Part shown: one piece after another, positions 21,124-38,872 of the stretch
Position numbering within the stretch: position 1 is the stretch's first letter
Layout of the letters: each line of letters starts with the position of its first letter
Assembly: GCA_026129095.1 (NCBI GenBank)
Contig: JAHCIT010000003.1
Location: 1 to 64,000 of the forward strand
Origin: Deltaproteobacteria bacterium
GTDB taxonomy: Bacteria; JAGRBM01; JAHCIT01
Reading direction: 5' to 3'
DNA length: 64,000 nt
Notes under the pieces: model-generated
The model's input: the letters and a program-made list of their open reading frames with translations, nothing else
The model's database searches: none
Told to the model about the DNA's origin: nothing
Made by a program: the position numbers and the translations under genes

Positions 21124-24009
21124 ATGGGTGAGCAGTTTTTCCTTTCCGTCGAGTTCGAGAACCTCGTTGACCTGTCGGCGCTGGCAGTTTCCATCTTCCT
21201 CTTCCCTCTGGGCTGGAGAGGCGCCCGGAGCATGCAGACGGCCTTTGCTCGGTGGTGCCTGTCCGCCTTCTTTTCCGTAATGGTTTTCCACTTCGGGCTG
21301 CAGGCGCTCCGGAGCGGATACCACCTTGCGTCGAACCTGCCCTTCAGCGCGGGGTACTTCCTGCCGCTTCTGGCGATCACCGAAACGCTCGGTGCGGGAC
21401 TGCTGCTGGCGTTGCTGGTGAGCGGCTGGAGTCTCGTCTGGGCGCGCTGGTCGCTGGGAGTGGTGATTGCCGCCGCACTGGTATCCGGGGCGGCGGCCCA
21501 CCTGACCGGTGCGTCTGGCCTGCCGCTGATCATCCGGGGCCAGTATGCGTTTGCCCAGACCCCGCTGGCCTGGATGGGGTTTCTCCGGGCGTTCCTGCTG
21601 GCTGCTGCGGGGGTAGCGGTGCTGCGTGCGGGCGTCGGTTTTCCGCTGCCGCGGCGGCTGGGGCTCGTCGCGCTGGGGCTGGCTGCCTGGCAGTTTCTCA
21701 ACCTGCCGGTTGTTTTAGGCGCATCAATCCCGGCGGCGGCGGTGAGTTCGTCAGCGGGACAGGTTGCGGGCCTGCTTGCTGTCGTGGGCGGAATCGTCAT
21801 CGTATACGATTTCAACGACGTCAGGTGGCGGTCGTTCGCAATGCGGGTCTTCGTGCTTGCGTTCGTGGTACTGGTGACGTTCATCCTGACGCTCTCCTTT
21901 AACTACCTGCTGCGTGTGCGGTTGCTGGACGAGGCACTGGTCCGCTACCGGGGTGAAGGCCGGAAGATCGCCGCCGATATTACGGAGACACTGGATGAAC
22001 TGGCCGGCTCGCTCTCCCGGCTGACCGAGCCGGCGGTCTTCCAGTTTTTCAGCACCCGCTTCCATTCCTCCAGCGCGGCGGTGAGCGAACTCGGCCTCGA
22101 TCTGGTTCGCGGGTACATTCCACGTGAATTCAACACGGTCAGCTTCACCGATCCGGCCGATCTTCTCCTGCTGGTGTATTCGGCCTATGGCGGTGTGCCC
22201 GGCGCAGCGCCGGCGCTCACCGCCAGCCAGATGAACCAGCTGTGGGCGGCTCCGGGCCGGGTGCTGATTTTTGATCTGGACCAGTCGGCGCGGGGAGGGC
22301 TGATTTCCGATGCTGGTGGAATACGCACCACTCCGGAAGCCATGCCGGAGTCGCAGCCTTCAGTAATGCTGGCGGCAGCGGTCAGTGACCGGTCGGGCCG
22401 TGCGCTCGGATTCGTCAAGGGCGTCATCCCGGTCCAGTCGCTGCTTTCGCATTTCGCGGGATATGACAGCAGCTCGGGGTGGGACTTCATCGCCACCGAG
22501 ACAGGCACCATCCTCGCCCATCCGCGTGCTGACTATGTGGGCTACCAGATCGACCGGCGGGGGAGTGCGTGGGAAGATGCGCTGGGTGCGAAACGGTGGT
22601 TCCAGCTCGACCTGCCGGGAGGGCGGATCTACCTGGCATTGTACCCGGTGGATCACGGCGACTGGGTGCTTGCCCGCGCTGTATCGACCACGACGATCGT
22701 CGAATCCACCCGCAAGCTGCGCGGCGCGACGCTTCTCATGCTGCTGTTCACGATGTTCGTGGCCGTCGTGATCGCGGCTGTCGTGTCGGTGGTGCTCACC
22801 CGGCAGAACGTCGCCATCGAGCGAATGGGGTTCGAGGTGGAGCGCAAGCGTGTGCTGGAAGACCGCAACCGGGTCCTGGACCTCAAGAACCGGGAGCTGG
22901 CGGGCGAGCGCCGGCGTATCGAAACGATCCTTCTTTCCATTGGTGAAGGGGTGGTCGTACTCGACCCGGAGGGCCAGGTGACGTTCATGAACCGCGCCGC
23001 CCGCCGGATACTGAAAGACGTGCCGGCTCCACAGGCGGTGCCTGTCGGTGCCGGACAACTGGGCATACCGGAGCTTGAATACGAGCTGGCCCGGCTTCGC
23101 GAGGCGGGGCAGGAGCCCGGTTCGGTTCGCACGTTCATCTGCAGGGGCGGGGAAGTCGATCTTCGTGTCACGCTGTCGGAAGTTCGTGCCGATGACGGGA
23201 GCCTCGTGGCGACGGTGCTGGCCCTTCAGGATATTACCGAACTGATGAAGGTTGACCGGCTCAAGACCGAGATCGTTTCGATCGTGAGCCATTCGCTGCG
23301 GACTCCCCTGACATCGATCAAGTCATACACGGAAATCCTGCTCAGCCACCCCGGAAAGGCGATCGGCGCCAGGGAACTCCAGCACCTCGGCGTTATTGAC
23401 CGTTCGGCTGACAAACTGACCCGTATTGTCACGAATCTTCTCGATCTCTCCAAGATATCTTCCGGACAGATGCAGTACCGCTTCGAGCCGACCGACATCG
23501 AAAGACTGGCGGCGGAGGCCGTCGAACTGGTTTCAGGCGCCGCCAGAGCCAAGGACATCGGGGTGGATTTCCAGGCCGATGCGGACCTGCCGTCGCTTCC
23601 GATCGACCGGCTCAAGTTCCGGCAGGTGCTCGACAACCTGCTGGGGAACGCAGTCAAGTTCACCCCTTCAGGCGGGAAAATCGGCCTGGAAATCCGGGTC
23701 GTCCCCACGGAGTCGCTCCCGGAAACGGTCCGGGCGGAGAACTGGGGCCCGCCGGGCCACTGTGTCCTCATCCGCGTGCGTGACACCGGCTCCGGTATCC
23801 GCCAGCAGAACCTGGAGCGGATTTTCGACAGGTTTTTCCAGGATGACTACGTGCGCCAGTCGTCCGAAGGCGGAACGGGGCTGGGCCTCGCTATCACTAG
23901 GGAGTTCGTGCAGGCCCACGGCGGGCGCATATGGGCCGAGTCTCCTGCCGGCAGCGGCGCCATTCTCAGCGTGGCGCTTCCCCTCTCGCAGGCCGCGGTT
24001 GCCGCCTGA
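21124..24009 (+). CDS. Large membrane sensor histidine kinase
   Basis: A 961-residue kinase. It has about seven transmembrane segments in the first 260 residues, a large extracytoplasmic domain of Cache-like character (about 265-525, with GWDFIATETGTILAHP and DHGDWVLARAV), another transmembrane helix (about 533-558) and a short coiled-coil. A PAS domain (about 600-705) precedes HisKA with H-box His723 in SIVSHSLRTPLTS. The HATPase domain has NLLGNAVKF, DTGSGI and GTGLGLA. It should sense an external small molecule and phosphorylate the regulator 63 bases downstream. The combination of an N-terminal 7TM bundle with a separate Cache-like domain is less common than either alone. Confidence 0.88.
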   Translation: MGEQFFLSVEFENLVDLSALAVSIFLFPLGWRGARSMQTAFARWCLSAFFSVMVFHFGLQALRSGYHLASNLPFSAGYFLPLLAITETLGAGLLLALLVSGWSLVWARWSLGVVIAAALVSGAAAHLTGASGLPLIIRGQYAFAQTPLAWMGFLRAFLLAAAGVAVLRAGVGFPLPRRLGLVALGLAAWQFLNLPVVLGASIPAAAVSSSAGQVAGLLAVVGGIVIVYDFNDVRWRSFAMRVFVLAFVVLVTFILTLSFNYLLRVRLLDEALVRYRGEGRKIAADITETLDELAGSLSRLTEPAVFQFFSTRFHSSSAAVSELGLDLVRGYIPREFNTVSFTDPADLLLLVYSAYGGVPGAAPALTASQMNQLWAAPGRVLIFDLDQSARGGLISDAGGIRTTPEAMPESQPSVMLAAAVSDRSGRALGFVKGVIPVQSLLSHFAGYDSSSGWDFIATETGTILAHPRADYVGYQIDRRGSAWEDALGAKRWFQLDLPGGRIYLALYPVDHGDWVLARAVSTTTIVESTRKLRGATLLMLLFTMFVAVVIAAVVSVVLTRQNVAIERMGFEVERKRVLEDRNRVLDLKNRELAGERRRIETILLSIGEGVVVLDPEGQVTFMNRAARRILKDVPAPQAVPVGAGQLGIPELEYELARLREAGQEPGSVRTFICRGGEVDLRVTLSEVRADDGSLVATVLALQDITELMKVDRLKTEIVSIVSHSLRTPLTSIKSYTEILLSHPGKAIGARELQHLGVIDRSADKLTRIVTNLLDLSKISSGQMQYRFEPTDIERLAAEAVELVSGAARAKDIGVDFQADADLPSLPIDRLKFRQVLDNLLGNAVKFTPSGGKIGLEIRVVPTESLPETVRAENWGPPGHCVLIRVRDTGSGIRQQNLERIFDRFFQDDYVRQSSEGGTGLGLAITREFVQAHGGRIWAESPAGSGAILSVALPLSQAAVAA

Positions 24010-24072: not shown

Positions 24073-24768
24073 ATGGAAAAGGTACTGGTGATCGAGGATG
24101 ACGAAAACATCCTCACAGCCGTCAAGATACTCCTCGAAGAAGAGGGATTTGCTGCCCTTACGGCACGCACCCTTGCAGATGGCCGCAACAAGACCGAGGC
24201 TGAAAATCCGGATATCGTCCTGCTGGACCTGATGCTGCCGGACGGCGACGGGCTCGACTACTGCCGCGAATACCGGCAGAAACGTCCGGGCATGCCCGTC
24301 ATCATCGTTTCCGCCAAGGACGAGGAGGTTGACAAGGTGGTGGGCCTCGAAATCGGGGCCGACGACTACCTTACCAAGCCGTTCTCCAAGCGCGAACTGG
24401 TGGCCCGGATCAAGTCGGTCCTTCGCCGCACGGCCAAGGAAAAGGACGCGCCCGCGCTCGACCGGGAGAAGACCCTCACCATCCGGGGCATGAAACTGAA
24501 CCCCAAAAAATACGAACTGTCCTTCAAGGGGACCACGATCCGGCTCCAGCCCAAGGAGTTCGATCTGCTCTACGTACTGGCGACCGCCCCCAACAAGGTG
24601 ATGAACCGCAAGTATCTACTGAAGACGGTCTGGGGGTACGGGCCGGACATCGAAACCCGCACGATCGACGTCCACATCAAGAACCTGCGGGTCAAGCTGA
24701 AGCCGTTCTTCGGCGAGGACAACCTCATCATTACCGTCCCGACCGAAGGCTACAAGCTGATCCGCTAG
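24073..24768 (+). CDS. OmpR/PhoB-family response regulator
   Basis: A 231-residue regulator: receiver domain (phospho-acceptor Asp52 in VLLDLMLPDGDG, switch Lys in TKPFSKRE) and a C-terminal winged helix (LQPKEFDLLYVLATAPNKVM, then TRTIDVHIKNLRVKLK). It is almost certainly the partner of the kinase upstream. It ends one base before the end of the convergent gene, leaving no room for a dedicated terminator. Confidence 0.93.
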   Translation: MEKVLVIEDDENILTAVKILLEEEGFAALTARTLADGRNKTEAENPDIVLLDLMLPDGDGLDYCREYRQKRPGMPVIIVSAKDEEVDKVVGLEIGADDYLTKPFSKRELVARIKSVLRRTAKEKDAPALDREKTLTIRGMKLNPKKYELSFKGTTIRLQPKEFDLLYVLATAPNKVMNRKYLLKTVWGYGPDIETRTIDVHIKNLRVKLKPFFGEDNLIITVPTEGYKLIR

Positions 24769-26920: not shown

Positions 26921-26999
26921 GAAGCTGCCTCCACATACCGGACTGGCTGAACGGACGCTAATATAGCCGGTTACAAACCCATAGAACCTGTGGACACTA

Positions 27000-27029
27000 T
27001 TGACCAATTGGCTCATCCGTCCCTAGACT
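27000..27029 (+). promoter_or_regulatory. Candidate sigma-70 promoter of the Glt-like cluster
   Basis: TTGACC (27000-27005, 5 of 6 to consensus), an 18-base spacer and TAGACT (27024-27029, 4 of 6) lie 43 bases before the ATG at 27072, in the AT-richer gap between the divergent genes. No other pair in this gap is as good on the plus strand. Confidence 0.45.
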
Positions 27030-27071: not shown

Positions 27072-27611
27072 ATGAAACAGGCCCTCCGTCTCATAACCGC
27101 CGTCTGCGGCCTCTCGCTGGTGTTCCTCGGGCTGGCCCCGCTGGGACTTTCGGCGCAGGACGTGCGCAGTGTCGACGATGAAATCAACGACCTCCGTTCC
27201 AAGCTGGTCAAGATCAACGCCGATCTGGACGAGCTGGAAAAGGACCTCCTGCTGCCCCGGATGTCGGCGGTCAAGATATTCCTGACCTCCAGCTCTGGCC
27301 GGGATTTCCAGCTGGAGCAGGTGAAGGTGCTCCTGAACGGCAAGGTCGTGGGCTCCCATGTCTACCGGCAGGAGGAAAACATCGCGCTGGACAACGGCGG
27401 TGCCCAGGAGCTCTATATGGGGCCGATTTCCGAAGGTGAGCACACCATTCAGGCCCAGTTCTCCGGTGTCGATTCACTGAAGACCAAGGTCAACCGTGCC
27501 ATCCAGATCAAGTTTCGCGGCCGGAGCCGGGTGCTTTCCTTCGTCGAACTGAAGGTGAGTTACGACCGCACCAAGCGGGCCCCTGACTTCACATACGATA
27601 TCTGGGAGTAA
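27072..27611 (+). CDS. Small periplasmic coiled-coil/beta protein, first gene of Glt-like cluster
   Basis: A 179-residue protein with a signal peptide ending near LSAQD. A short coiled-coil follows (about 33-60: DDEINDLRSKLVKINADLDELEKDL). Then comes a beta-rich domain resembling a PEGA-like fold (VKVLLNGKVVGSHVYR...ISEGEHTIQAQFSG). The end is DFTYDIWE. I do not recognise a named family. It is separated by only ten bases from the next TPR gene, and its place at the head of the cluster makes it a candidate accessory subunit of that machine. Confidence 0.72.
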   Translation: MKQALRLITAVCGLSLVFLGLAPLGLSAQDVRSVDDEINDLRSKLVKINADLDELEKDLLLPRMSAVKIFLTSSSGRDFQLEQVKVLLNGKVVGSHVYRQEENIALDNGGAQELYMGPISEGEHTIQAQFSGVDSLKTKVNRAIQIKFRGRSRVLSFVELKVSYDRTKRAPDFTYDIWE

Positions 27612-27621
27612 ACCGGACCCG

Positions 27622-29778
27622 GTGAAGCGCCGACAGGCCACATACGCACTCGCAGTGGCGGCTGTCCTGCTGACAGCCCGGGGGGCAAGCCTTCGGGCCG
27701 CGCAGGATCCCGTCCATCTCTCGGTGAGCCCCCTGTACTCGTCCTCGGACAAGATCCGCGTCCAGCTCATGAGCGCCGAATACGAGCGGCTCACCGACAA
27801 CTGGATCAACCAGGACCCGTCGGTGGTGAACATGCTGAACCACTCGCGTGCCAATTCCGACGTGCACCCGCTGGTGCAACTCGGTGCGGGCAGCCTGTAC
27901 GAAACCATCGGACTCTTTGTCGAGGCCCAAGAGCAGATACAGGCGATCATCAAGGGCAAGGCCCGGAAGGAGGCCGAACCCGGTGCCTTCTTCACGCTCC
28001 AGAAAGTGTACTACCAGGCGGGTGAATATGCCCGGTCCGCATCGAGCTATTCGTTCGTTGCGAAGCACCCTCAGTTCCGGAAGCTGGACGAGGCGCGGTA
28101 TCTGGCGGGACAGGCCTATTTGCGTCTCAATGCCCCCGACCAGGCCGTCGAGGTGCTGAACCAGGTTGATATCAGCACACGCTGGGGTGCCTATGCCCGC
28201 TATTCGCTGGCCGTTGCCTATACCCAGCTCAACCGGATGGACGAAGCTGTCAGGGCCTACCGGGAGGCTATCGTCCTGGCTGACCGGACGGTCAAGGCCG
28301 GCGGCATCGAGGTGGCGGAGCGTGTCGTGACGGTGCTCCGGGCGCGTGGGCCGGGGTCCGAAAACGCCGAGGAACAGGTGGTCCAGGGCAGCGAGACCAT
28401 CCGGACTACGCTCACGCCGCTGACCGATTCGGAACTGAAGGCGCTGGAGGGTTTGCGGTCACGCGCCCAGATCGGCCTGGGTTATCACTACATCCAGTTC
28501 AAGCAGTACCAGCAGGCTTTCGATGCGCTGTCGGCGGTGCCTGAAACCGACGCCTACTTCATCGAGGCGCTTTACGCGAAGGCATGGGCGCTCATCTACC
28601 AGAAGCGGCTCACCGAAGCGATCGTACTGCTCAACAGCCTGCTGAAACGGTCGCGCACCGGACAGTTCGCTTACGAGGCCTATCTGGTGGTTGGTTCCTG
28701 TTTCATGAATCTCGGCGCCTATGACCGGGCAATCAAGTCCTACCGGTCGGCGCAGGAGCTGTACAAGCGCGAGCGCGAGGTTGTCCGGGCCGTGGCCGAG
28801 GCGGACTTCTTCCGCGACCGCTTCGATCTTATCCGCAGCTACTTCATCCTGGAACGTGAAGGTGCCCGTGATCCGTTCGGTCTTGCCGAGTCGCGGCTCA
28901 CGGATTTCGACCAGCTCGTTTATGCGAATATCGTATCCAATCCGGTGGTGCGCGACAGCTACACGCAGTTCGACGATATCGGCCGCTACCTGGCCGCACT
29001 GAATGACCGCCGTGACAATCTGGTCCGTTACCAGATCATGATTGACGACAAGTTGCGGACAGTCGCACGGGTTGCCGATGTCCTGGACAAGGAATGGACC
29101 CCGCGTTTCAAGGACCTGCTGGAGGATTTCACCCAGCTTGATGACCGCATCAATGCCAAGGGCAGGCGGTTCGATATCTGGGCCATGGCTTCGCCGAAGG
29201 AGACGATGCTGTTGCGTGATCTCCAGACGAAGAAGAACGCCATCCAGGAGATCGAGACGGATCTGAAAGGGGTGCAGGGACAGGTCGGTTCGGTATCCAG
29301 CCGGCTCCAGGCGGACGCGGCGCAGGATATTACCAGCCGTGTGGCGGCATCCGGCGATCGTGTCGAGAAACTGAAGCGGATGCAGCGTCTTCGGGCCGGA
29401 GAGGCGATCTGGAAGATCGTCGCTGTTGACCCGACCCAGCGTGTTTCGCGCGAAGCGGGAATCGAAACCCGGCAGCGGCGGGACGTGGCACGCATCAAGC
29501 AGGACATCGACCGCGTTCAGCGGCGGATCGAACAGCTTCGGGATGATGTTGATCGCGTGCGCAACCGTCACCGGGACATGAAGGTCCGGGCGAACGATCT
29601 CCAGGCCCGGGTGAAACAGGTGCTCGACCGGACCGAGAGGCTGTACGTCAATCTGGTGGACCAGCTCAACCGGGCGGTCGTGGCCGAATACAAGAACCAT
29701 GACGAACGTCTTGAGCGCTTCGATCTTGAGGCCAGTTACGGAATCCTGACAGCACTCGACAAGCAGACGGGAAGGTAA
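27622..29778 (+). CDS. Periplasmic TPR protein, GltC/NfsC-like
   Basis: A 718-residue exported protein: signal peptide (LAVAAVLLTARGASLRAAQ), TPR-type helical repeats (about 60-370) and a long C-terminal coiled-coil (about 490-700, for example RIKQDIDRVQRRIEQLRDDVDRVRNR). The start is GTG. The length, export signal and TPR-then-coil layout fit GltC, the periplasmic TPR protein of the Myxococcus gliding machinery, and its sporulation paralogue NfsC. This is a resemblance of architecture and gene order; I could not align sequences. The next gene starts after four bases. Confidence 0.72.
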   Translation: MKRRQATYALAVAAVLLTARGASLRAAQDPVHLSVSPLYSSSDKIRVQLMSAEYERLTDNWINQDPSVVNMLNHSRANSDVHPLVQLGAGSLYETIGLFVEAQEQIQAIIKGKARKEAEPGAFFTLQKVYYQAGEYARSASSYSFVAKHPQFRKLDEARYLAGQAYLRLNAPDQAVEVLNQVDISTRWGAYARYSLAVAYTQLNRMDEAVRAYREAIVLADRTVKAGGIEVAERVVTVLRARGPGSENAEEQVVQGSETIRTTLTPLTDSELKALEGLRSRAQIGLGYHYIQFKQYQQAFDALSAVPETDAYFIEALYAKAWALIYQKRLTEAIVLLNSLLKRSRTGQFAYEAYLVVGSCFMNLGAYDRAIKSYRSAQELYKREREVVRAVAEADFFRDRFDLIRSYFILEREGARDPFGLAESRLTDFDQLVYANIVSNPVVRDSYTQFDDIGRYLAALNDRRDNLVRYQIMIDDKLRTVARVADVLDKEWTPRFKDLLEDFTQLDDRINAKGRRFDIWAMASPKETMLLRDLQTKKNAIQEIETDLKGVQGQVGSVSSRLQADAAQDITSRVAASGDRVEKLKRMQRLRAGEAIWKIVAVDPTQRVSREAGIETRQRRDVARIKQDIDRVQRRIEQLRDDVDRVRNRHRDMKVRANDLQARVKQVLDRTERLYVNLVDQLNRAVVAEYKNHDERLERFDLEASYGILTALDKQTGR

Positions 29779-29782
29779 CCCG

Positions 29783-32700
29783 ATGGGCAGTGACCGGCAT
29801 CAATCAGCATGTCGCGCCGCCGTGTCGGCGTGCATGATATCGCTGCTGGCTGTGGCCGGATGCACAGAGAAGGAAGACATCACCCAGCGCCGGCGGCGTC
29901 CGGGCGCACAATTGCGTGAAGTCGAGAAGGTCGAACGTATCCAGCAGGACCTGGTGATCGAGGATACACCGGCACCGGTGCAGGGCGGCCCCATCGTGGA
30001 TTTCGGTTCAGAGGCGGCCGAGCTGAGCCGCGAGCTGGATGCCGAGCTGAAGGCCCAGACTGCCGCACGAAAGCTGGCCGAGGAGATGGACCGCAAGCGC
30101 GAGGCCGAGCGGATGGATCAGCTCTCCGCGCTGGAGGCCGCCAGCGCCGAAAAGCGCCGGGAACTGGCCGCCGCGACCACCCTGAAGGCAAGCGAAATCT
30201 CCATGAGCGACCAGCAGCTCAAGAAACTGATCGCCGCAAGCGAGGAGTTTGTCGCCAAGGGTGAAGCCCAGAAGAGCCGGGCCAATATCGTCCCGCAGGC
30301 GATCCACCGGCTCGCGGACCTGTATGTCGTCGCCGAAAATGCCCGCTACCAGGAAGCGCTGATGGATTTCGACCTCGCCACCAAGGCGTGTGAGGCGAAC
30401 CCCAGGATCGAATGCCCGGACGATATCCCGCTGAAAGACTATTCCCAGGCGATCGGGTCCTATAACCGCCTGTTGAACGAGTTCCCGGACCGCAAGGATA
30501 ACGACCGCGTCCTCTACATGCTGTCGTTCTGTTATCAGGAAATGGCGATGGTGGCGGCAGCCGAGAAGGTACTGACCGATTTTATTGCCCGCTACCCCAA
30601 GGACCAGCGTACACAGGCGGCTCACTTCCGGCTGGGTGAACTGTATTTCACCAACGCTACCGGGCTGGATCTGTTCGAGGCCCGGCCGTGGCTGGAGAAG
30701 GCCTCGGCGTCGTACAAGAAGGCTACGGAGTTCGATCCGGACAGCGAGTATTTCGACCGTTCCCTTTACAAGCTCGGATGGACGCACTTCCGGATGCAGC
30801 AGTACTCGGTCACTGTGGATTTCATGGCCCGGCTGGTCGAGACCCGGTCGCGGATCGAGATCGAGCAGAAGAAGACCTACAGGAACTTCGACGAACTGTA
30901 TGTCAAGGACACGGGGCTGGTCCGCGAAGCGGTCCAGTACATGTCGATTGCCTTTACGGAAATGGGCGACGGCAAGAGTGGCCCCAGGAATCTCGAGGAA
31001 TACTGGGCGAAGCGGAAGTCGCAGCCCTATGAGCAATACACCTACATTGCGCTGGGTGAGTACCTCAGCAACGAGGAACGCTACGACGAAGCGATAGCGG
31101 TTTACGAGCGGCTGCTGGCGAAATATCCGGCCTATCATCGCGCTCCGAACGTCTACGAACTGATCATCACCACCTATGAGAAGGACAAGAAGTGGGAAAA
31201 GGTGGTTGAGACTCGCAAGCAGATCATCACGGCTCTTGCACCGGGTGGGCTCTGGTGGAACACGAACCAGAAGGATCAGGAGACGGTGGCCCTCGCGGTC
31301 AGCATCCGTTCCAAGGCCATCCTCCAGATGGGTCAGTACCACCATGCCAAGGCCACGCATGCAAAGACGCCCAAGAGCGAGCAGCCGGCGCATTTCGAGG
31401 AGGCTGAAAACTACTACCGGCAGTTCCTGGCGGAGTTCCCCAACACGCCTGAAGCGGGCGACACCCGCTACATGATCGCCGAGGTCTACGTGGCGCGTGG
31501 AAACATGCCGGCAGCGGCGGGGCATTACTACGATGTCGCCTGGGTGCTCCAGCTCGGGGAACGGCAGGAGAGGGCCGGCCTCAAGGCCATCCAGGCCTAC
31601 AACGATTCGCTGGAAGAGGATCTCGACCGCATCGAGAACGACCGCAAGGCCAAGGGACAGGTCTATGCACGCAAGATCGGCCTGCTCCAGAGCCAGTATA
31701 CCGACAAGGTGCTGGATGCGATCCGCAAGTTCTCGGAGAAATACCCGCAACACGAGAAGACCCTCGATATTCTCGTGCTGGAAGGTGCCATCCATTATGA
31801 CGGCGAGAACTGGACGGCATCGCGCAACGTATTCCAGCGGATCGTGAGGGATTATCCGAAAGACCCGCGTTCGCTGCTGCCCAAGCGGTACATCGCGGTC
31901 ACGTACATGGAAGCCGGCATGCTGAAGGAGGCCGAAGAGGCTTATCGCGACGCGGCCAGAGACCCCAGGTGGTCGGCGCAGGACCGCAATGACCTGCTCA
32001 CGCTGCAGACGGCGACCGTATACAAGCGCGCCGAACAGTTCCACGAGCAGCGCGACTACACGCAGGCGGCGGCGACATTCATGCGTGTTCCCAACGAATT
32101 CCCGCAGTCGGATATCGCCGTCAAGGCGTTCTTCCGGGCCGCTACCTCGCACCGGAGCGCCGAGCGGTTCAACGACATGGTGGCGACCTTCAACGACCTC
32201 GCGGCCAGGTACCCGCAGACCGAAGAGGCGGCTGCCGGATATGTGACGATCGGCGAGTACTACCGGGACACGAAGCAGCTCGACAAGGCGGCCGAGCAGT
32301 ATTGCCGGGCCTCGACCCTGTTTGAGCGCCAGAGAAAAATGGCTGACGCCGAGGAGCTCCAGTATGCCTGCGGCAAGACCTATGAGGACCTGAAGGACTG
32401 GAACAACACGCAGGCGGCGTTCCAGAACTATGTCCGCCGGTTCAGGGACAAGAATCTCGCCCGTACGCTGTACGCGACGTTCGTGGACGGCCTGATTTAC
32501 TATGATCGCAAGGACTGGACGAACGCTGACCGTGTATTCAATATGGTGGTCGCCCGTCATCGGGACATGAAGCGCCAGAATCCGGGCCTGACGGATGAAC
32601 TTCCCGCCCGGGCCCGCTTCCTCCAGGCTGACCGCCGGTTCGACGACTACACGGCCATCAAGATCACGCTGCCGCTCAAGCGGTCGTTCCAGCGCAAGCA

Positions 32701-33280
32701 GAAGTCGCTTACCGAACTGCTGGAGCTCTATGCCGGATCGGCGCAGTATCGCGTGCCGGAATATGTAACCGCCTCATCACACCGGATCGGCATGGCACTT
32801 CTGGATTTCCGTACCTCCATCCTTGTGTCGGAGATACCTAAGGAACTGCTGATCGATGAACTGCTGGTTGAGGAGTACAAGCTGCAGCTCGAGGAGCAGT
32901 CCTTCCAGTTCGAAGAAAAGGCAATTGAAACTTTCGAACGTAACCTGAGCTACGGGCAGCAGAACGTCTACCTGAACGAATGGATCAATAAGTCGATTGA
33001 CGAACTGGCCCGCATCGTTCCGGCGAAGTACGCCCGCCCGGAACTGGGAACCGCGCTCTTCTGCGACGAATTCGCATACCGGGTTTACGACGTCCGGCCG
33101 TTCGGCGACCAGGAGGCCCGGGACTCCAAGCGCAAGGCGGACAAGGAGTTCGAGGACCGGCTGAAGCGCGAGGAAGAAGCTGCCGAGATACAGAAGAAGA
33201 AGGCGGAGGCCGAGGCGGCCGAAAAGGCCAGGCAGCAGCCACCACCCGCACCCGCTCCGGCGGCACCAAAGAAACGCTAG
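29783..33280 (+). CDS. Large TPR lipoprotein, GltD/AgmU-like
   Basis: An 1165-residue lipoprotein. The signal ends with lipobox AVAGC (Cys27). A coiled-coil follows (about 70-140), then a long superhelix of TPR repeats through about residue 1000 (for example HFRLGELYFTNATGLDLFEARPWLEKASASYKKA; DEAIAVYERLLAKYPAYHRAPNVYELI). The C-terminal 60 residues are a charged coil ending in Ala/Pro/Lys. The size and layout match GltD/AgmU and NfsD, TPR proteins that help bridge the envelope in myxobacteria. It sits second of three TPR genes, in the C-D-E order of those systems. No enzyme motif is visible. Confidence 0.75.
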   Translation: MGSDRHQSACRAAVSACMISLLAVAGCTEKEDITQRRRRPGAQLREVEKVERIQQDLVIEDTPAPVQGGPIVDFGSEAAELSRELDAELKAQTAARKLAEEMDRKREAERMDQLSALEAASAEKRRELAAATTLKASEISMSDQQLKKLIAASEEFVAKGEAQKSRANIVPQAIHRLADLYVVAENARYQEALMDFDLATKACEANPRIECPDDIPLKDYSQAIGSYNRLLNEFPDRKDNDRVLYMLSFCYQEMAMVAAAEKVLTDFIARYPKDQRTQAAHFRLGELYFTNATGLDLFEARPWLEKASASYKKATEFDPDSEYFDRSLYKLGWTHFRMQQYSVTVDFMARLVETRSRIEIEQKKTYRNFDELYVKDTGLVREAVQYMSIAFTEMGDGKSGPRNLEEYWAKRKSQPYEQYTYIALGEYLSNEERYDEAIAVYERLLAKYPAYHRAPNVYELIITTYEKDKKWEKVVETRKQIITALAPGGLWWNTNQKDQETVALAVSIRSKAILQMGQYHHAKATHAKTPKSEQPAHFEEAENYYRQFLAEFPNTPEAGDTRYMIAEVYVARGNMPAAAGHYYDVAWVLQLGERQERAGLKAIQAYNDSLEEDLDRIENDRKAKGQVYARKIGLLQSQYTDKVLDAIRKFSEKYPQHEKTLDILVLEGAIHYDGENWTASRNVFQRIVRDYPKDPRSLLPKRYIAVTYMEAGMLKEAEEAYRDAARDPRWSAQDRNDLLTLQTATVYKRAEQFHEQRDYTQAAATFMRVPNEFPQSDIAVKAFFRAATSHRSAERFNDMVATFNDLAARYPQTEEAAAGYVTIGEYYRDTKQLDKAAEQYCRASTLFERQRKMADAEELQYACGKTYEDLKDWNNTQAAFQNYVRRFRDKNLARTLYATFVDGLIYYDRKDWTNADRVFNMVVARHRDMKRQNPGLTDELPARARFLQADRRFDDYTAIKITLPLKRSFQRKQKSLTELLELYAGSAQYRVPEYVTASSHRIGMALLDFRTSILVSEIPKELLIDELLVEEYKLQLEEQSFQFEEKAIETFERNLSYGQQNVYLNEWINKSIDELARIVPAKYARPELGTALFCDEFAYRVYDVRPFGDQEARDSKRKADKEFEDRLKREEEAAEIQKKKAEAEAAEKARQQPPPAPAPAAPKKR

Positions 33281-33295
33281 GAGAAAGGGGACGTC

Positions 33296-34354
33296 ATGCG
33301 AATGAAATGGAACCAGTATCTGATCGCAACCGGGATCGTGGCGCTTTCGCTGACGTCCGCTACGGGATGCGGGAAGAAGACCGCACCGGCCTATGACAGT
33401 AGCCGGGAAATCGAGGGAGAGGAGTTCCAGATTTCGGATGAAGAGCGTCGCCGCGTCCTGCAGGAACTGGGGGTCGCCGAGGACCAGATTGCCGGCGGGG
33501 ATATTGATCCCACCAAGCGGATGACCGAGGCCGAACGCGAAGCAGCCCGCCAGCGGCAGCGGGAGCGTCAGGCCCAGCGCGGTGAGCCGGCGCCTGATTC
33601 CACGCCAGCCGCTCCGGCCCCCGGCCAGGCCGTGGCGGTCGCGCCAGCCAAACCGGCTGAACCGGCCAAACCGGCAGTGCCGACTGCACCAGCAGCTTCC
33701 GGCCGGGGCATGACCCCCGAAGGGCGGACGGCAAACCGGGCCTGCAAGCAGTGCGAGTTTTACCTGAATGAGAAAGACCTGACGCTGGCGATGCAGCGCG
33801 CTGATGCGCTTGTCCAGCAGTTTCCCCAGATGGCCGAAGGGTACATTGCCCGGGCGATTATTTACCGCCGGCAGGGGAAGCTGGAAGATGCTGAACTGGA
33901 ACTCCGCCGCGCACTTGGTTTCGACAAGGACCATGAATGGGCGACTGTCTATCTGGCCACCCTGTTGAGGGATCAGGGCCGCCTGAAGCCTGCGATCTGG
34001 ATTCTGGAAGAGCACCGGAAGAAGTTCCCGAACTCGCTGCCTGCCCTTTACAGCCTGGGGATTCTGTATGAACTCTATGCCGGAGCATACGCCAAGGCAC
34101 TGGTCACGTATGTCGACTACCTGCGCAAGGGCGGGCCGCGGCAGAAGGAAGTGAATGTCTGGATTGATGCCCTGTCAATCCGCCTCGGCGTCGAACGGCC
34201 GGACACCCCCGGCATGTACGTTGCTCCGCCCCCGAAGCCGGCCGAACCGGCCACTCCGGCGGACGGGGAAGCCAGCCCCGAGGTACCGGCTCCCGCTTCA
34301 CCCGGTCCGGCGCCATCGGCTCCAACTCCGGATCCAGCGCCGCAGGCGTCCTGA
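33296..34354 (+). CDS. TPR lipoprotein, GltE/AglT-like
   Basis: A 352-residue lipoprotein (lipobox SATGC, Cys25). A Pro/Ala-rich linker (about 90-140) leads to three to four TPRs (about 145-285, for example AEGYIARAIIYRRQGKLEDAELELRRALGF). A Pro-rich tail ends the protein. GltE/AglT and NfsE of Myxococcus are TPR lipoproteins of similar size placed directly after GltD/NfsD. Here the gap to the GltD-like gene is 15 bases. The two cysteines in RACKQCEF just before the TPRs could form a disulfide or bind metal. Confidence 0.75.
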   Translation: MRMKWNQYLIATGIVALSLTSATGCGKKTAPAYDSSREIEGEEFQISDEERRRVLQELGVAEDQIAGGDIDPTKRMTEAEREAARQRQRERQAQRGEPAPDSTPAAPAPGQAVAVAPAKPAEPAKPAVPTAPAASGRGMTPEGRTANRACKQCEFYLNEKDLTLAMQRADALVQQFPQMAEGYIARAIIYRRQGKLEDAELELRRALGFDKDHEWATVYLATLLRDQGRLKPAIWILEEHRKKFPNSLPALYSLGILYELYAGAYAKALVTYVDYLRKGGPRQKEVNVWIDALSIRLGVERPDTPGMYVAPPPKPAEPATPADGEASPEVPAPASPGPAPSAPTPDPAPQAS

Positions 34355-34613
34355 TTGCGGGGGCTGTGGCTCGCCAAGTTGGCTTAGTTCTCATCAGTTC
34401 CAAGTGAATAATTTATGTGAGTTTCCTCACGTCTTATGTAACCGGCTGGAATGGTTTGATTTCGGCTGGCGCGGCGCGTCAGCAGGCTTGGGACAATGTT
34501 ATGAAAATGTTGGGGATCACACTCATTTTTCTTGAGTTTCGGGTATCCTGAGGATTATGTTCCTTCACATCGGTTTACAGTTCTTTCGGGGAAGGAAACC
34601 ATCCGGCGGAAGG

Positions 34614-35096
34614 ATGCGAGTGGGAATGAGAATTCTTGCCTTCGTTTTATTCACTGTAATCGGCGGGCTCGCCGTGAACGTGAACCTTGTGTTTGCCCAG
34701 TCCGCCGGGAAGGGCAAGGCAGACGCGAAGGCGGGCGCAAAACCGGCGGCCGATACCGGGAAAAAGGAAAAAGAAGTCGTCACGACCCGCTCTCGCTCGG
34801 GTGCTGTACAGTTCGAGGCCCTCCGCATTGAGACCGAAAAGGAAGGTCCAGGCGTCATCTTCATCGACAACTGGACGCCGAGCACGAAGCGCGAGTTTGA
34901 CGACGAAGCCAAGAGCGAACTGGACCGGGTGTTCATGGACATTCGCGGCCTGAACCGCTCATTCGACCGGCGCATCAAGCAGGCCCCCGATGTCACCCAA
35001 ATTCAGCGTGAAAATGCCGCTCGCGATGCCGAGCGGCGGCTCCTTTCCCTTGACCAGGGCCGGGTCAAGACCGACCGGGCAACTGTTCAGCGCTAA
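34614..35096 (+). CDS. Small periplasmic protein in the GltF/NfsF position
   Basis: A 160-residue protein with a signal peptide (hydrophobic core ILAFVLFTVIGGLAVNVNLVF, cleavage near FAQ). A Lys/Ala-rich linker follows, then a conserved-looking region (SGAVQFEALRIETEKEGPGVIFIDNW) and a helical charged end. I do not recognise the family. The ATG at 34614 or the one at 34626 both leave the signal peptide intact. It has an AT-rich 259-base gap in front, so it may carry its own promoter, unlike the tightly packed genes before it. Confidence 0.68.
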   Translation: MRVGMRILAFVLFTVIGGLAVNVNLVFAQSAGKGKADAKAGAKPAADTGKKEKEVVTTRSRSGAVQFEALRIETEKEGPGVIFIDNWTPSTKREFDDEAKSELDRVFMDIRGLNRSFDRRIKQAPDVTQIQRENAARDAERRLLSLDQGRVKTDRATVQR

Positions 35097-35261
35097 CCCT
35101 TGAAATAGACACACGGTACGCAGTGCTCCGACTGGAGCGGAGCGTTACTTCGTCTTCATTTTGACGGCAAAAACACCGCCGAAGCCAGCGATTTCGTTGA
35201 CCCTTCCGGCGTCAGCCGCTAGGCTTGCCCGGAAGCAGTTCTCTTCGGCACTGGAAGCACG

Positions 35262-36761
35262 ATGTCGGTAACGGGTTCCGAAAAACAGCACGGCCATTCG
35301 GCGGCAGGCGGCCAGCAGCAGGGCCTTTTGCCCTGTGTGATTGAAGGCGGCAGCGGCCGGCGCGGCTACTTTGCCGGCGGCAAACTGGTGATCGGACCTG
35401 GTGGAAATGGCGCTTTTGCGGCCAAGGGGATCGACGCCCCGGTTCAGATTGCCGGCCCGTCCAAGTCGGCAGACCAGTTTTACCTGTTCCTCACCCGGGA
35501 AATGACAGGGCGGATCATCCGGGGGAATGAAACCACCCCCATTGATGATCCGTCGGCGCTGGGGCTCCGCGAGAATAACGGCCGCTACGCGCTGCCAGTA
35601 ACCAAGGAAATGAAAGTTGACCTCAGGATCGGCGAAGCCGTCCTCAGGTTCAGTTGGGAAATGGAAAACACAGAACAGCCATCCGCAAAGAAACCGTCCG
35701 CCGCCCCCTCATCCGCACAGGGCCGTCCGCCTGCGCCACCGCCGGCTTCACCCGGAAAGATGCCCGTGTTCCGCCGGGCCAAGTCCAAAGACAAGGACAA
35801 GGAAAAGAAGCGCGGCCGCATCCGGATGACCACCAAGCCGATCCGCTGGGTGGAGATTCCGGTTACCGATCCGGGCAACAAGCCAATGGTGGGGTCATTC
35901 GGCCTCGTTGCGACGGTCTGTATCGGCGTGCTGGCCACGCTGGCTTACATGCGGCTGCACTACCTGCCTCCCAAGGATATCGCCGCCCCGCCGCCCAAGA
36001 TCGTGACCAAGCTTCTCGTTCCAGAAAAGCCGGAGCTTCCGCCTCCTCCGCCAATCGAGAAACCGCTGGAGATGAAGAAGGAAGAGGTGGTCGAGGAGCC
36101 GAAAGCCGACGCCAAGCCCGACAAGGCACCTAACGCGGAAGCTACCAGGGAGGAGCGCCGCGCCCAGGCCAAGGAGCAGGTGAAGTCCCAGGGACTTCTG
36201 GCCGTGCTGGGTTCCAAGGGCGGTCCCTCGGCCAGCCGGGATATCACGCGGGCAACTTCTGCCCTCCAGAACGTGTTCCAGGGCCTTGGTGCCGTGACCA
36301 CGAGTTCCAAGGGCGACACCGACATAAAGAATCTCGGCGGCTATGGCGAAGCAGGGGGTATCGACGATGCCATCGCCGGGCTGAAAGCCGTCAAGAGCAA
36401 CGTGGGCAAGACGACGGCCGAGAAAGTGGACGATTCGATCGTCTCCGGAGAGGCCGCTGGTGATAACCGGCGCTCGTACGCTGCTATCGCGGCGGTCATG
36501 CGGCGCTACCAGCCGCTGCTGAAGAGCCGTCATACACGGCTCCTGCGTACTGCCCCGGCGGCACAGGGCAAGATCACGGTTGAATTCACCATTGCGGCCG
36601 ACGGTTCGGTCAAGAGCCAGAAGATTACGGATTCCGCCTTCAGCCGCTATCCGGAGTTTGAAAAGGAAATCCTCGACCTGATCGGCAAGATCCGCTTCGA
36701 ACCGATCGAAAAGGGCGAGGTTCGCGTTGCCTTCCCGTTCATCTTCACCGTCAGCGGCTGA
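35262..36761 (+). CDS. AgmX/PglI-family transmembrane protein, GltG-like
   Basis: A 499-residue single-pass inner-membrane protein. A cytoplasmic N-terminal domain (about 22-132) has the pattern seen in AgmX/PglI proteins, ending LRIGEAVLRFSWE. A Lys-rich linker, a transmembrane helix (about 209-230) and a periplasmic Pro/Glu/Lys-rich spacer (about 235-310) follow. The TonB-like C-terminal domain (about 420-499) reads GKITVEFTIAADGSVKSQKITDS and VRVAFPFIFTV. GltG and GltJ in Myxococcus share this arrangement and connect cytoplasm to outer-membrane partners. No TonB/ExbD partner, ExbB/MotA-type motor or GYF/zinc-ribbon domain is seen in the window. Confidence 0.85.
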   Translation: MSVTGSEKQHGHSAAGGQQQGLLPCVIEGGSGRRGYFAGGKLVIGPGGNGAFAAKGIDAPVQIAGPSKSADQFYLFLTREMTGRIIRGNETTPIDDPSALGLRENNGRYALPVTKEMKVDLRIGEAVLRFSWEMENTEQPSAKKPSAAPSSAQGRPPAPPPASPGKMPVFRRAKSKDKDKEKKRGRIRMTTKPIRWVEIPVTDPGNKPMVGSFGLVATVCIGVLATLAYMRLHYLPPKDIAAPPPKIVTKLLVPEKPELPPPPPIEKPLEMKKEEVVEEPKADAKPDKAPNAEATREERRAQAKEQVKSQGLLAVLGSKGGPSASRDITRATSALQNVFQGLGAVTTSSKGDTDIKNLGGYGEAGGIDDAIAGLKAVKSNVGKTTAEKVDDSIVSGEAAGDNRRSYAAIAAVMRRYQPLLKSRHTRLLRTAPAAQGKITVEFTIAADGSVKSQKITDSAFSRYPEFEKEILDLIGKIRFEPIEKGEVRVAFPFIFTVSG

Positions 36762-37087
36762 AGTCCGGGCTAAAATACGTTCACAAATGGCCGCCGGGAT
36801 GGTCAATCCATCCCGGCGGCCTTATTTATCCGGTTGTTCGTCCGCTGTGAAATCGGCAGGGCGGTATGGCTCTTGCTGGTTTGGCAGCCCGGCTGGAGGG
36901 CCTCACGAGGAGCTGATACCGTATCAGAAATGTATAAACTCTTAAAATCACTGTATTTCAGGCAGAGATATACGAAAAACGGCTTGCGCCCGGGCCCGGT
37001 TTTTGATATCCAAGTTCGGGCCGCTGCGTCAAAACCGTGGCAATCAGTGAGGGCCGGAGCGCAGCGGCAGGCGGCCAAGTCAAATTC
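36762..37087. other. Intergenic region between the Glt-like cluster and the sigma factor
   Basis: The first part carries the terminator of the cluster. The remaining part (about 36830-37080) is AT-richer, with no frame that looks coding, and must contain the promoter of the sigma-factor gene. I could not fix a convincing -35/-10 pair. Confidence 0.5.
36789..36827 (+). terminator. Rho-independent terminator closing the Glt-like cluster
   Basis: Perfect 14-base arms, ggccgccgggatgg (36789-36802) and ccatcccggcggcc (36808-36821), with a five-base loop tcaat and tail ttattt. It lies 27 bases after the stop of the GltG-like gene and separates that cluster from the sigma-factor gene. Confidence 0.95.
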
Positions 37088-38872
37088 ATGGCATCATCAA
37101 AAAAACCAAATAAATCAGCTGGTTCAAGCAAGAAAAAATCGGCAGCAGGGGCTATCCGGCGACCTACTGTCGGCAAAAACAATATGACTGCCAATAAAAT
37201 GACATCACGTTCGGCTGCTAAAGTCGTAAAGAAAACGGCTGCCCCGGCAAAGGGAAAGGCCGTGAAGGCCCCAGCCAAGGGGAACAAGGCCGTACCGGCG
37301 AAGGCCCAGGGCAAGGTGGTCGCGAAGGCGATGACCTACGAGCAGGTTACGAAGCTTCAGGCGGGCGCTGGAGCCGCCGGGGCTGCCGGCAGCAAGAAGG
37401 CGCGTCCGGCGCCATTCTCGTCACCGGATGCGGCCAAGCTTCGCGAACAGAAGCGCAAGCTCGCCCAGATTCTTGGTCCTGAGGAAGAGCAGCAGGATAT
37501 CTACGACGAAGTCGATATCATGAAGACCTACCTGAAAGAGGTAGGCAACATAAAGCTCTTCACGCCGGAAGAAGAAGTGAAGGCGGCCTCGAAAATCGAG
37601 GCCATTACCGAAAAGCTCTACGACACGGTGCTTGTCGTTCCATTCGTCACGCATCTGATCATGTACCGTTCCAGTCTTCTCAAGGAGAAGAAATACAAGG
37701 TCTGGGACATGGTGAAATACGACGAGATGATCGACCGTGGCGCCGATGAGGAGGCCGTATCGGAAAAGGTCATCCGCACGGCCACCGTCCTGAAGGCGCT
37801 CCACCAGAAGCGCCTCCGGATGATGAAGGAACTTTATGACAAGCGGCTGTCGAAGCAGGCCCGCGAGAAACTGGACAGCCGGTATGACAAGCTGCTCCAG
37901 GAACTGCTGGACAACATCAAGAGGCTGAACCTGAACATCGTGTTCGTCGAGGGTATCGTGCGCATGCTGCAGGCGTGGCGGGACGGCAAGCACCGCGACG
38001 CAGGCATGCCCGGTATGCTCGTGATCGAAAACGAGACTGCCGCCGAAATGATCCTGCCCCCGGCGCATCTTGAGGTCGGTTATCCGGAGGAGAACCTGAG
38101 ACGCCTCCTTGTCGAGGTGGAGCGCACCCAGCGGGAGATCAAGTTCGCCAAGGAGGAGTTCGTCAAGGCAAACCTCCGGCTGGTGATCTCTATCGCCAAG
38201 AAATACCGCAATGCCAAGGTGTCGCTCACCGATCTCGTCCAGGAGGGCAACATCGGCCTCATGCGCGCCGTGGACAAATACGAATACAAGCGCGGCCTGA
38301 AGTTCTCCACCTATGCGACCTGGTGGATCAAGCAGGCCATCAACCGGGCCATTTTCGACCAGTCGCGCACGGTGCGTATCCCGGTCTACATGCGCGAGAA
38401 CCTGAACAAGCTGAAGCAGGCGCAGAAGAAGCTCTCCAGCGCGTCCGGAGAGCCGCCCTCCATCCACGACATCGCCAAGGAACTGGGCATGCCCGAGGAC
38501 CGCGTGACCGAGCTGCTCCAGATCGATCTGGAAACGGTCTCGCTGGAAATGTCCGTGGGCAAGGAAGATGACAAGGTGCTCGCCGACCTCATCGAGGACG
38601 ACAAGGTTCCGCTTCCCGAAGAGGAGATGGTGAACATCTCGCTTGCCGAGGAACTGGACAAGGCGCTGAAGACGCTTTCTCCCCGCGAGGAAAAGATCCT
38701 GCGCATGCGGTTCGGAATCGGCGGCACACGGCGTCACACGCTGCTCGAGATTGGCAAGGATTTCGGACTCACCCGCGAGCGCATACGCCAGATCGAGAAA
38801 AAGGGCGTCGAAAAGCTGCGTCTTCCGCTCAAGAACGTCAGTTTGCAGGACTTCCTCGAAGAAGGCCTGTAA
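37088..38872 (+). CDS. RpoD-like sigma-70 factor with Lys/Ala-rich N-terminus
   Basis: A 594-residue sigma factor. The first 120 residues are a basic low-complexity Lys/Ala/Pro tract with no recognisable region 1.1. Region 1.2 ([21 protein letters not shown]), a non-conserved insertion, region 2 ([30 protein letters not shown]), region 3 and region 4 ([36 protein letters not shown]) follow. The -10-reading helix differs from typical primary factors ([21 protein letters not shown]). It could therefore be a group-2 (alternative, RpoD-related) factor rather than the housekeeping one. The start at 37088 is a choice; no strong ribosome-binding site is visible. Confidence 0.85.

What the first reader, a model, noticed from the sequence alone, without database searches (positions are those of the whole stretch)
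27072..36761. Six-gene Glt/Nfs-like trans-envelope cluster outside its usual context
Directly visible: a small periplasmic coil protein, a TPR+coil periplasmic protein, an 1165-residue TPR lipoprotein, a 352-residue TPR lipoprotein, a small exported protein and an AgmX/PglI-type transmembrane protein. They run in that order and are mostly 4-15 bases apart, with a perfect terminator behind the last. Established: Myxococcus gliding (Glt) and sporulation (Nfs) machines contain C (TPR), D and E (TPR lipoproteins), F and G (FHA-like/TM/TonB-like), in that order. Inference: this is a related machine. It has an extra first gene (27072) that I cannot match, no AglRQS/ExbB-type motor, no adjacent A/B barrels, no GltH or GltJ. 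It may represent a simpler or ancestral version with another cargo.
Basis: partly seen in the sequence, partly recalled or inferred. Interest (0 to 1): 0.85.

Follow-up and report, generated by a model that had tools for sequence, protein, structure and literature searches.

The report
Motor-less Glt/Nfs-type envelope machine genes
This is a known kind of bacterial envelope-spanning machine, related to the one that drives gliding and spore-coat wrapping in Myxococcus, but in this deep-branching lineage the genes for its dedicated proton-driven motor have been lost from the operon and were found nowhere else in the genome.

Summary
Six co-directional genes (27072-36761) are present, with a 14-bp terminator stem behind the last. 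Three of the five gaps are 4-15 bp; the other two are 202 and 165 bp.

Comparison with about 45 related loci shows the standard 'core complex' order X-C-D-E-F-[R-Q-S motor]-G. The window has X-C-D-E-F-G with R-Q-S missing. The 'unmatchable' first gene is X, the usual first gene of the core in Gammaproteobacteria. The small fifth gene is most likely GltF/CglF; the last has GltG architecture.

The only other held genome of the order (a different family) has the same six genes and flanking genes, also without a motor. The window's genome has only TolQ-TolR and one ExbB-ExbD-TonB set. All 12 surveyed genomes whose motor is not in the Glt locus carry tandem AglQ/S-type ExbD genes elsewhere.

A GltD tree nests the pair beside motor-bearing gammaproteobacterial cores (97/93); grouping with myxobacterial-type clusters is rejected (p-AU 9e-5). 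So this is derived motor loss, not an ancestral simple form.

What it does without the motor is inferred: a passive trans-envelope scaffold is favoured over borrowing another ExbBD/TolQR. New variant of a known kind.

The parts
21124..24009 (+). sensor histidine kinase (961 aa), conserved upstream neighbour
   Evidence: its C-terminal part is 53% identical to the kinase upstream of the same cluster in G001
24073..24768 (+). PhoB-type response regulator, conserved upstream neighbour
   Evidence: Pfam Response_reg and Trans_reg_C; 77% identical to the regulator directly upstream of the cluster in G001
27072..27611 (+). gene X: exported protein, coiled-coil helix then beta-sandwich domain; first gene of the Glt-type core complex
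   Evidence: 53% identical in G001; homologues first in the core operons L104, L105, L068, L073, L078 and weaker ones in L037, L040, L043; AF2 model pLDDT 80, coil 28-60 and strands 66-178
27622..29778 (+). GltC-like exported TPR plus coiled-coil protein
   Evidence: TPR hits; 32% identical in G001; same position and profile matches in L040, L068, L104, L105
29783..33280 (+). GltD-like 1165-aa TPR lipoprotein (lipobox LAVAGC)
   Evidence: TPR hits; 38-40% identical in G001; tblastn E 5e-59 and 4e-58 to the gammaproteobacterial cores; used for the tree
33296..34354 (+). GltE-like 352-aa TPR lipoprotein
   Evidence: TPR hits; NF033758 GltE only 14.5 bits against a cut-off of 225; 36% identical in G001; same position in the complete cores
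34557..35096 (+). GltF/CglF-like small exported protein
   Evidence: a GltF profile built without window or G001 sequences hits the G001 orthologue at E 2.5e-5; hhalign of the pair against GltF P 1.5e-5, probability 79%; GltF identity of that profile anchored by NF033764 CglF, 70 bits (cut-off 90), on L054
35097..35261 (+). F-G junction where AglR-AglQ-AglS lie in motor-bearing cores; 165 bp here, about 40 bp in G001; no motor genes
35262..36761 (+). GltG-like transducer: FHA-like N-terminus, one TM helix, Pro-rich linker, TonB_C/AgmX-PglI C-terminus
   Evidence: NF033768 58.1 bits; TonB_C 1.5e-6; N-terminus matches GltG N-termini, hhalign 1.2e-11
35313..35669 (+). FHA-like cytoplasmic domain of GltG (residues about 18-136)
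   Evidence: profile match to 39 GltG N-termini; no direct Pfam FHA hit
35898..35963 (+). transmembrane helix of GltG (residues 213-234)
   Evidence: hydropathy; AF2 helix 213-234, low confidence
36561..36749 (+). periplasmic TonB_C-like domain of GltG (residues 434-496)
   Evidence: tail 51% identical to G001
36789..36821 (+). terminator-like stem-loop, 14 perfect pairs, loop of 5
37037..38872 (+). RpoD-like sigma-70 factor, conserved downstream neighbour
   Evidence: Pfam; 61% identical to the gene downstream of GltG in G001

Best explanation
The cluster encodes the envelope-spanning part of a Glt/Nfs-type core complex (X-GltC-GltD-GltE-GltF-GltG) that has secondarily lost its dedicated AglRQS proton-channel motor. 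Supported here: identity of the six parts by homology and order, conservation in a second family, absence of an R-Q-S set from the locus and (as far as assembled) from the genome, and a tree position among motor-bearing cores. Inferred mechanism: GltG anchors the assembly in the inner membrane through one helix, with a cytoplasmic FHA-like domain and a periplasmic TonB_C domain; X, C and F occupy the periplasm; the TPR lipoproteins D and E reach the outer membrane. Without its own motor it most likely works as a passive, protein-binding trans-envelope scaffold, perhaps holding surface polysaccharide or other outer-envelope partners, under the linked two-component system, and not as a propulsion or cargo-rotating machine. 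I put identity at about 0.9, loss of a dedicated motor at about 0.8, and 'passive scaffold' at about 0.5.
For: The core order X-C-D-E-F-R-Q-S-G is seen in L040, L068, L104 and L105 (and in L073, L078 with C below the profile cut-off); the window reads X-C-D-E-F-G. G001 has the same six genes and the same flanking kinase, regulator and sigma factor. G000 has two MotA_ExbB and two ExbD genes: TolQ (219.7 bits against 221) in a tol operon, and an ExbB-ExbD-TonB set. G001 has one of each. All 12 surveyed genomes with a D-G locus that lacks an in-locus R-Q-S set carry tandem AglQ/S-type ExbD genes elsewhere. GltD tree: window+G001 (100/100) sister to the motor-linked gammaproteobacterial cores (97/93), inside a 13-row, mostly motor-linked clade (96/96); grouping with the myxobacterial/Bdellovibrio-type clusters rejected, p-AU 8.6e-5. 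Weak support for a lost motor contact: the GltG TM helix is only 12% identical between window and G001 while the tail is 51%.
Against: Both genomes are drafts (96.65% and 96% complete), and G001 also lacks a detectable TolQR, so it is probably missing loci. GltG keeps TM helix and TonB_C domain, as an energy transducer would. One motor-linked pair (L041/L080) has an equally diverged TM helix. The SxxxH coupling motif test was not informative. No functional data for any core complex outside Myxococcota and Bdellovibrionota were found in the papers read.
Confidence: 0.55

Rival explanations
1. Borrowed motor: GltG is energised in trans by the genome's ExbB-ExbD (C3:326 kb) or TolQR, so the complex is still an active surface transporter.
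For: In Myxococcus the Nfs complex has no motor of its own and borrows AglRQS (PMC3858216). GltG here keeps TM helix, Pro-rich linker and TonB_C domain. An ExbB-ExbD-TonB set and TolQR are present.
Against: Both available motors already have an adjacent transducer gene (TonB, TolA-like). AglR contacts are selective: the paralogue MXAN_3003 did not bind GltG or NfsG in a two-hybrid assay (PMC3858216). The TM helix is poorly conserved between the two genomes.
Confidence: 0.3
2. Missed motor: an AglRQS set exists in the unassembled few percent of both genomes, unlinked as in myxobacteria.
For: Both genomes are drafts; in myxobacterial-type genomes the motor is not in the D-G locus.
Against: Absent from both drafts; the tree puts the cluster with cores whose motor is in the operon, not with the unlinked type.
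Confidence: 0.12
3. Ancestral simple form: a pre-motor version of Glt.
For: It has fewer genes than Glt or Nfs (gene lists in PMC3169522).
Against: Nested among motor-bearing cores with starred support; X is shared with those cores.
Confidence: 0.03

Closest known systems
Glt/Agl 'core complex' of Gammaproteobacteria, Geobacter and Fibrobacter (Luciano et al. 2011, PMC3169522)
   Same: GltC, D, E, G in one cluster plus a first gene (X) that is homologous in the gammaproteobacterial MAG loci L104 and L105; same order; no GltA/B/H/I/J/K beside it
   Different: AglR-AglQ-AglS absent from the cluster and not found in the genome
Myxococcus xanthus Nfs sporulation complex (NfsA-H)
   Same: C-D-E-F-G order and no motor gene in the cluster
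   Different: no NfsA/B barrels or NfsH beside it; Nfs borrows AglRQS, which is not found here; GltD tree rejects grouping with the myxobacterial-type clusters
Myxococcus xanthus Glt gliding complex
   Same: GltC-G parts; an MglA 81% identical to that of a myxobacterium-like genome is encoded elsewhere in the genome
   Different: no AglRQS; A/B/H/I/J/K not seen at the locus (not searched genome-wide)
TonB-ExbBD and TolA-TolQR energy transduction
   Same: bitopic transducer with periplasmic TonB_C domain
   Different: no adjacent ExbBD/TolQR; TPR lipoprotein partners; FHA-like cytoplasmic domain

Membership tests
Glt/Nfs-type core complex (envelope part) | GltC-GltD-GltE TPR proteins in that order | tested here: met
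Glt/Nfs-type core complex (envelope part) | GltF/CglF small exported protein after GltE | tested here: met
   by way of the G001 orthologue E 2.5e-5 and hhalign P 1.5e-5; no direct NCBIfam hit for the window protein
Glt/Nfs-type core complex (envelope part) | GltG: FHA-like N-terminus, TM, AgmX/PglI (TonB_C) C-terminus | tested here: met
   NF033768 above cut-off, N-terminal profile match 1.2e-11; the full-length GltG equivalog model NF033760 not passed (50 against 650 bits)
Luciano core complex | additional first gene (X) | tested here: met
   that X is Luciano's unnamed gene is inferred
Luciano core complex | AglR-AglQ-AglS motor in the cluster or genome | tested here: not met
Myxococcus Glt gliding / Nfs sporulation machine | phylogenetic grouping with myxobacterial/Bdellovibrio-type clusters | tested here: not met
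Myxococcus Glt gliding / Nfs sporulation machine | GltA/B/H (NfsA/B/H) outer-membrane barrels | tested here: inconclusive
   not in the cluster; not searched genome-wide
Myxococcus Glt gliding / Nfs sporulation machine | motor-driven movement of the complex | not testable with these tools
   needs live imaging

The most novel reading that the evidence does not exclude
In this lineage a whole Glt-type trans-envelope complex has been kept under selection after permanent loss of its AglRQS motor and works as a motor-independent scaffold, so the Glt envelope module has a conserved function separable from force transmission.
Probability: 0.45. Interest if true: 0.65.

Novelty: new variant of a known kind. 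Interest (0 to 1): 0.5.

Why it matters
The function of the Glt core complex outside gliding and sporulating bacteria was unknown in the source read (PMC3169522). A lineage that keeps all of X-C-D-E-F-G but has no AglRQS would show that the envelope part can be useful without its motor, and gives a natural motor-minus system in which to ask what the envelope part binds. The comparison also suggests that GltF belongs to the widespread core, contrary to its listing as a Myxococcales/Bdellovibrionales-only gene in 2011, and describes gene X, for which no Pfam or NCBIfam model was hit.

Tried and rejected
SxxxH coupling motif in the GltG TM helix as a marker of motor contact: rejected, many motor-linked GltGs lack it too. 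TM-helix divergence as a marker: weak, 12% identity here but one motor-linked pair is also 12%. Naming the organism: the genome-contig scan returned only two gammaproteobacterial loci and no relative of the window's phylum; kinship labels show one other held genome of the order and none else below domain level. Fold comparison of X: generic beta-sandwich matches only, best E 1.5e-3. AF2 model of GltG: low confidence overall (pLDDT 52). Cambillau and Mignot 2025 (focal adhesion model) is not in the held library.

Full report
Observation. Genes 2, 3 and 4 are TPR proteins. Gene 6 passes the NCBIfam cut-off for the AgmX/PglI C-terminal domain (58.1 against 40 bits) but reaches only 50 of the 650 bits required by the full GltG equivalog, matching its C-terminal part; gene 4 touches the GltE model at 14.5 of 225 bits. 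Behind gene 6 is a 14-pair perfect stem with a weak T tail. The first three gaps are 10, 4 and 15 bp, the last two 202 and 165 bp.

The genome. The window is the first 64 kb of contig C3 of a 3.67-Mb draft (23 contigs, 96.65% complete). In samples of 60 and 386 genomes, only one other genome (G001) shares its order, and no other is closer than the same domain. The phylum could not be named with these tools.

Conservation. G001, of another family, has all six genes in the same order: X 53%, C 32%, D 38%, E 36%, F 40% and G 41% identical. Its G gene is split over two contig ends whose translations overlap by 41 identical residues. The sensor kinase and response regulator upstream (53% and 77% identical) and the sigma-70 gene downstream (61%) are conserved too. 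The whole block is therefore an old unit in this order.

Identity of the parts. I surveyed the AgmX/PglI tail (NF033768) in 386 genomes; 82 have it. I fetched loci around the best matches and scanned them with profiles built here. The recurrent order is X-C-D-E-F-R-Q-S-G. It is complete in L040 and L068 and in two named contigs, L104 (MAG of an uncultured Thiogranum) and L105 (MAG of a Proteobacteria bacterium). The fifth gene sits where GltF sits. A GltF profile made without the window or G001 hits the G001 orthologue at E 2.5e-5, and the pair aligns to GltF with P 1.5e-5. The GltF naming is anchored by NCBIfam CglF on one member, L054 (70 bits, cut-off 90). The N-terminus of gene 6 matches the FHA-like N-termini of 39 other GltGs. 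Luciano et al. (PMC3169522) described the core as gltC, D, E, G and aglRQS plus one additional gene; X is probably that gene, though this is inferred. They listed gltF as restricted to Myxococcales and Bdellovibrionales; the profile finds it in most cores surveyed here, including L104 and L105.

The missing motor. In motor-bearing cores R-Q-S lies between F and G (in one locus, L070, after G). Here that junction is 165 bp, and about 40 bp in G001. The window's genome has two ExbB-type genes and two ExbD genes. One pair is TolQ-TolR in a tol operon and the other is ExbB-ExbD next to a TonB. AglRQS would need one ExbB with two ExbDs. G001 has a single ExbB-ExbD. Twelve surveyed genomes have a GltD-to-GltG locus without an R-Q-S set in it; all twelve have tandem AglQ/S-type ExbD genes elsewhere. 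The window's genome and G001 are the only exceptions met among genomes with a GltD-GltG cluster. Caveat: both are drafts, and G001 lacks even a detectable TolQR, so its absence counts for less.

Direction of change. In a tree of 42 GltDs the window and G001 form a clade (100/100), sister to the gammaproteobacterial motor-linked cores (97/93), inside a 13-row clade (96/96) that is otherwise motor-linked apart from one long-branch row. Forcing the pair in with the myxobacterial/Bdellovibrio-type clusters, which keep their motor elsewhere, is rejected (p-AU 8.6e-5). The motor-less state is therefore most simply a loss from an operon that had R-Q-S, not an ancestral form. This rests on one gene and on a tree rooted only for drawing.

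Mechanism. Predicted from sequence: GltG is a one-helix inner-membrane protein carrying a TonB_C-like periplasmic end, X, C and F are exported, and D and E are lipoproteins. Known: in Myxococcus AglR binds GltG and NfsG, and the AglRQS proton channel is needed for both gliding and sporulation (PMC3858216). Inferred: without AglRQS the assembly is either a passive trans-envelope scaffold (favoured, about 0.5) or is driven in trans by ExbBD or TolQR (about 0.3). For the scaffold: the available motors have their own transducers beside them, AglR-type contacts are selective (MXAN_3003 failed to bind GltG or NfsG), and the GltG TM helix has drifted (12% identity against 51% in the tail). The last point is weak because one motor-linked pair is equally drifted. 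The SxxxH motif of TonB and TolA does not help, since many motor-linked GltGs lack it. In two other lineages the core is followed by polysaccharide export genes (L039, L045), which fits the polysaccharide cargo of Nfs and Glt; no such link was seen beside this cluster. The genome encodes an MglA 81% identical to one that lies beside an X-C-D-E-F-G locus without R-Q-S in a large genome, L037, but it also has several PilT homologues, so MglA may serve type IV pili.

Verdict. A real, conserved, Glt/Nfs-type core complex without its motor: a new variant of a known kind.

Noticed in passing
L037:5516-16364 (G029, 9-Mb genome): MglB-like (roadblock) and MglA genes lie directly upstream of an X-C-D-E-F-G cluster without a motor; that genome has tandem ExbD pairs elsewhere.
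   Followed up: partly
L039:9898-14554 and L045:7987-12263: Two Glt core loci are followed by a barrel-like protein, a Wza-type polysaccharide export protein and a Wzz/Wzc-type kinase, suggesting polysaccharide cargo.
   Followed up: partly
L039:7572-8429: A Glt locus with an AglR carrying a signal-like, Lys/Ala-rich N-terminal extension and no ExbD next to it (order D-E-F-R-G).
   Followed up: no
L008:5220-5687 (own genome C6) and L098:6165-7318 (G001): Small exported or lipoprotein-like proteins of 155-171 aa consisting mostly of a GltG/TonB_C-type tail without a separate TM anchor; in G001 two stand in tandem beside clpB.
   Followed up: partly
window 24770-27016 (-): A 748-aa protein without clear family sits between the response regulator and gene X; it is absent from the same place in G001, where the regulator directly precedes X.
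   Followed up: no
L076:6337-9925 (G346): An AglR-like ExbB with a GltG-tail protein but no GltD nearby and no tandem ExbD pair in the genome.
   Followed up: no
loci L036-L105 (survey): GltF/CglF-like proteins of about 90 aa occur in most Glt cores surveyed, between GltE and the motor or GltG, so they are not confined to myxobacteria and Bdellovibrio.
   Followed up: yes
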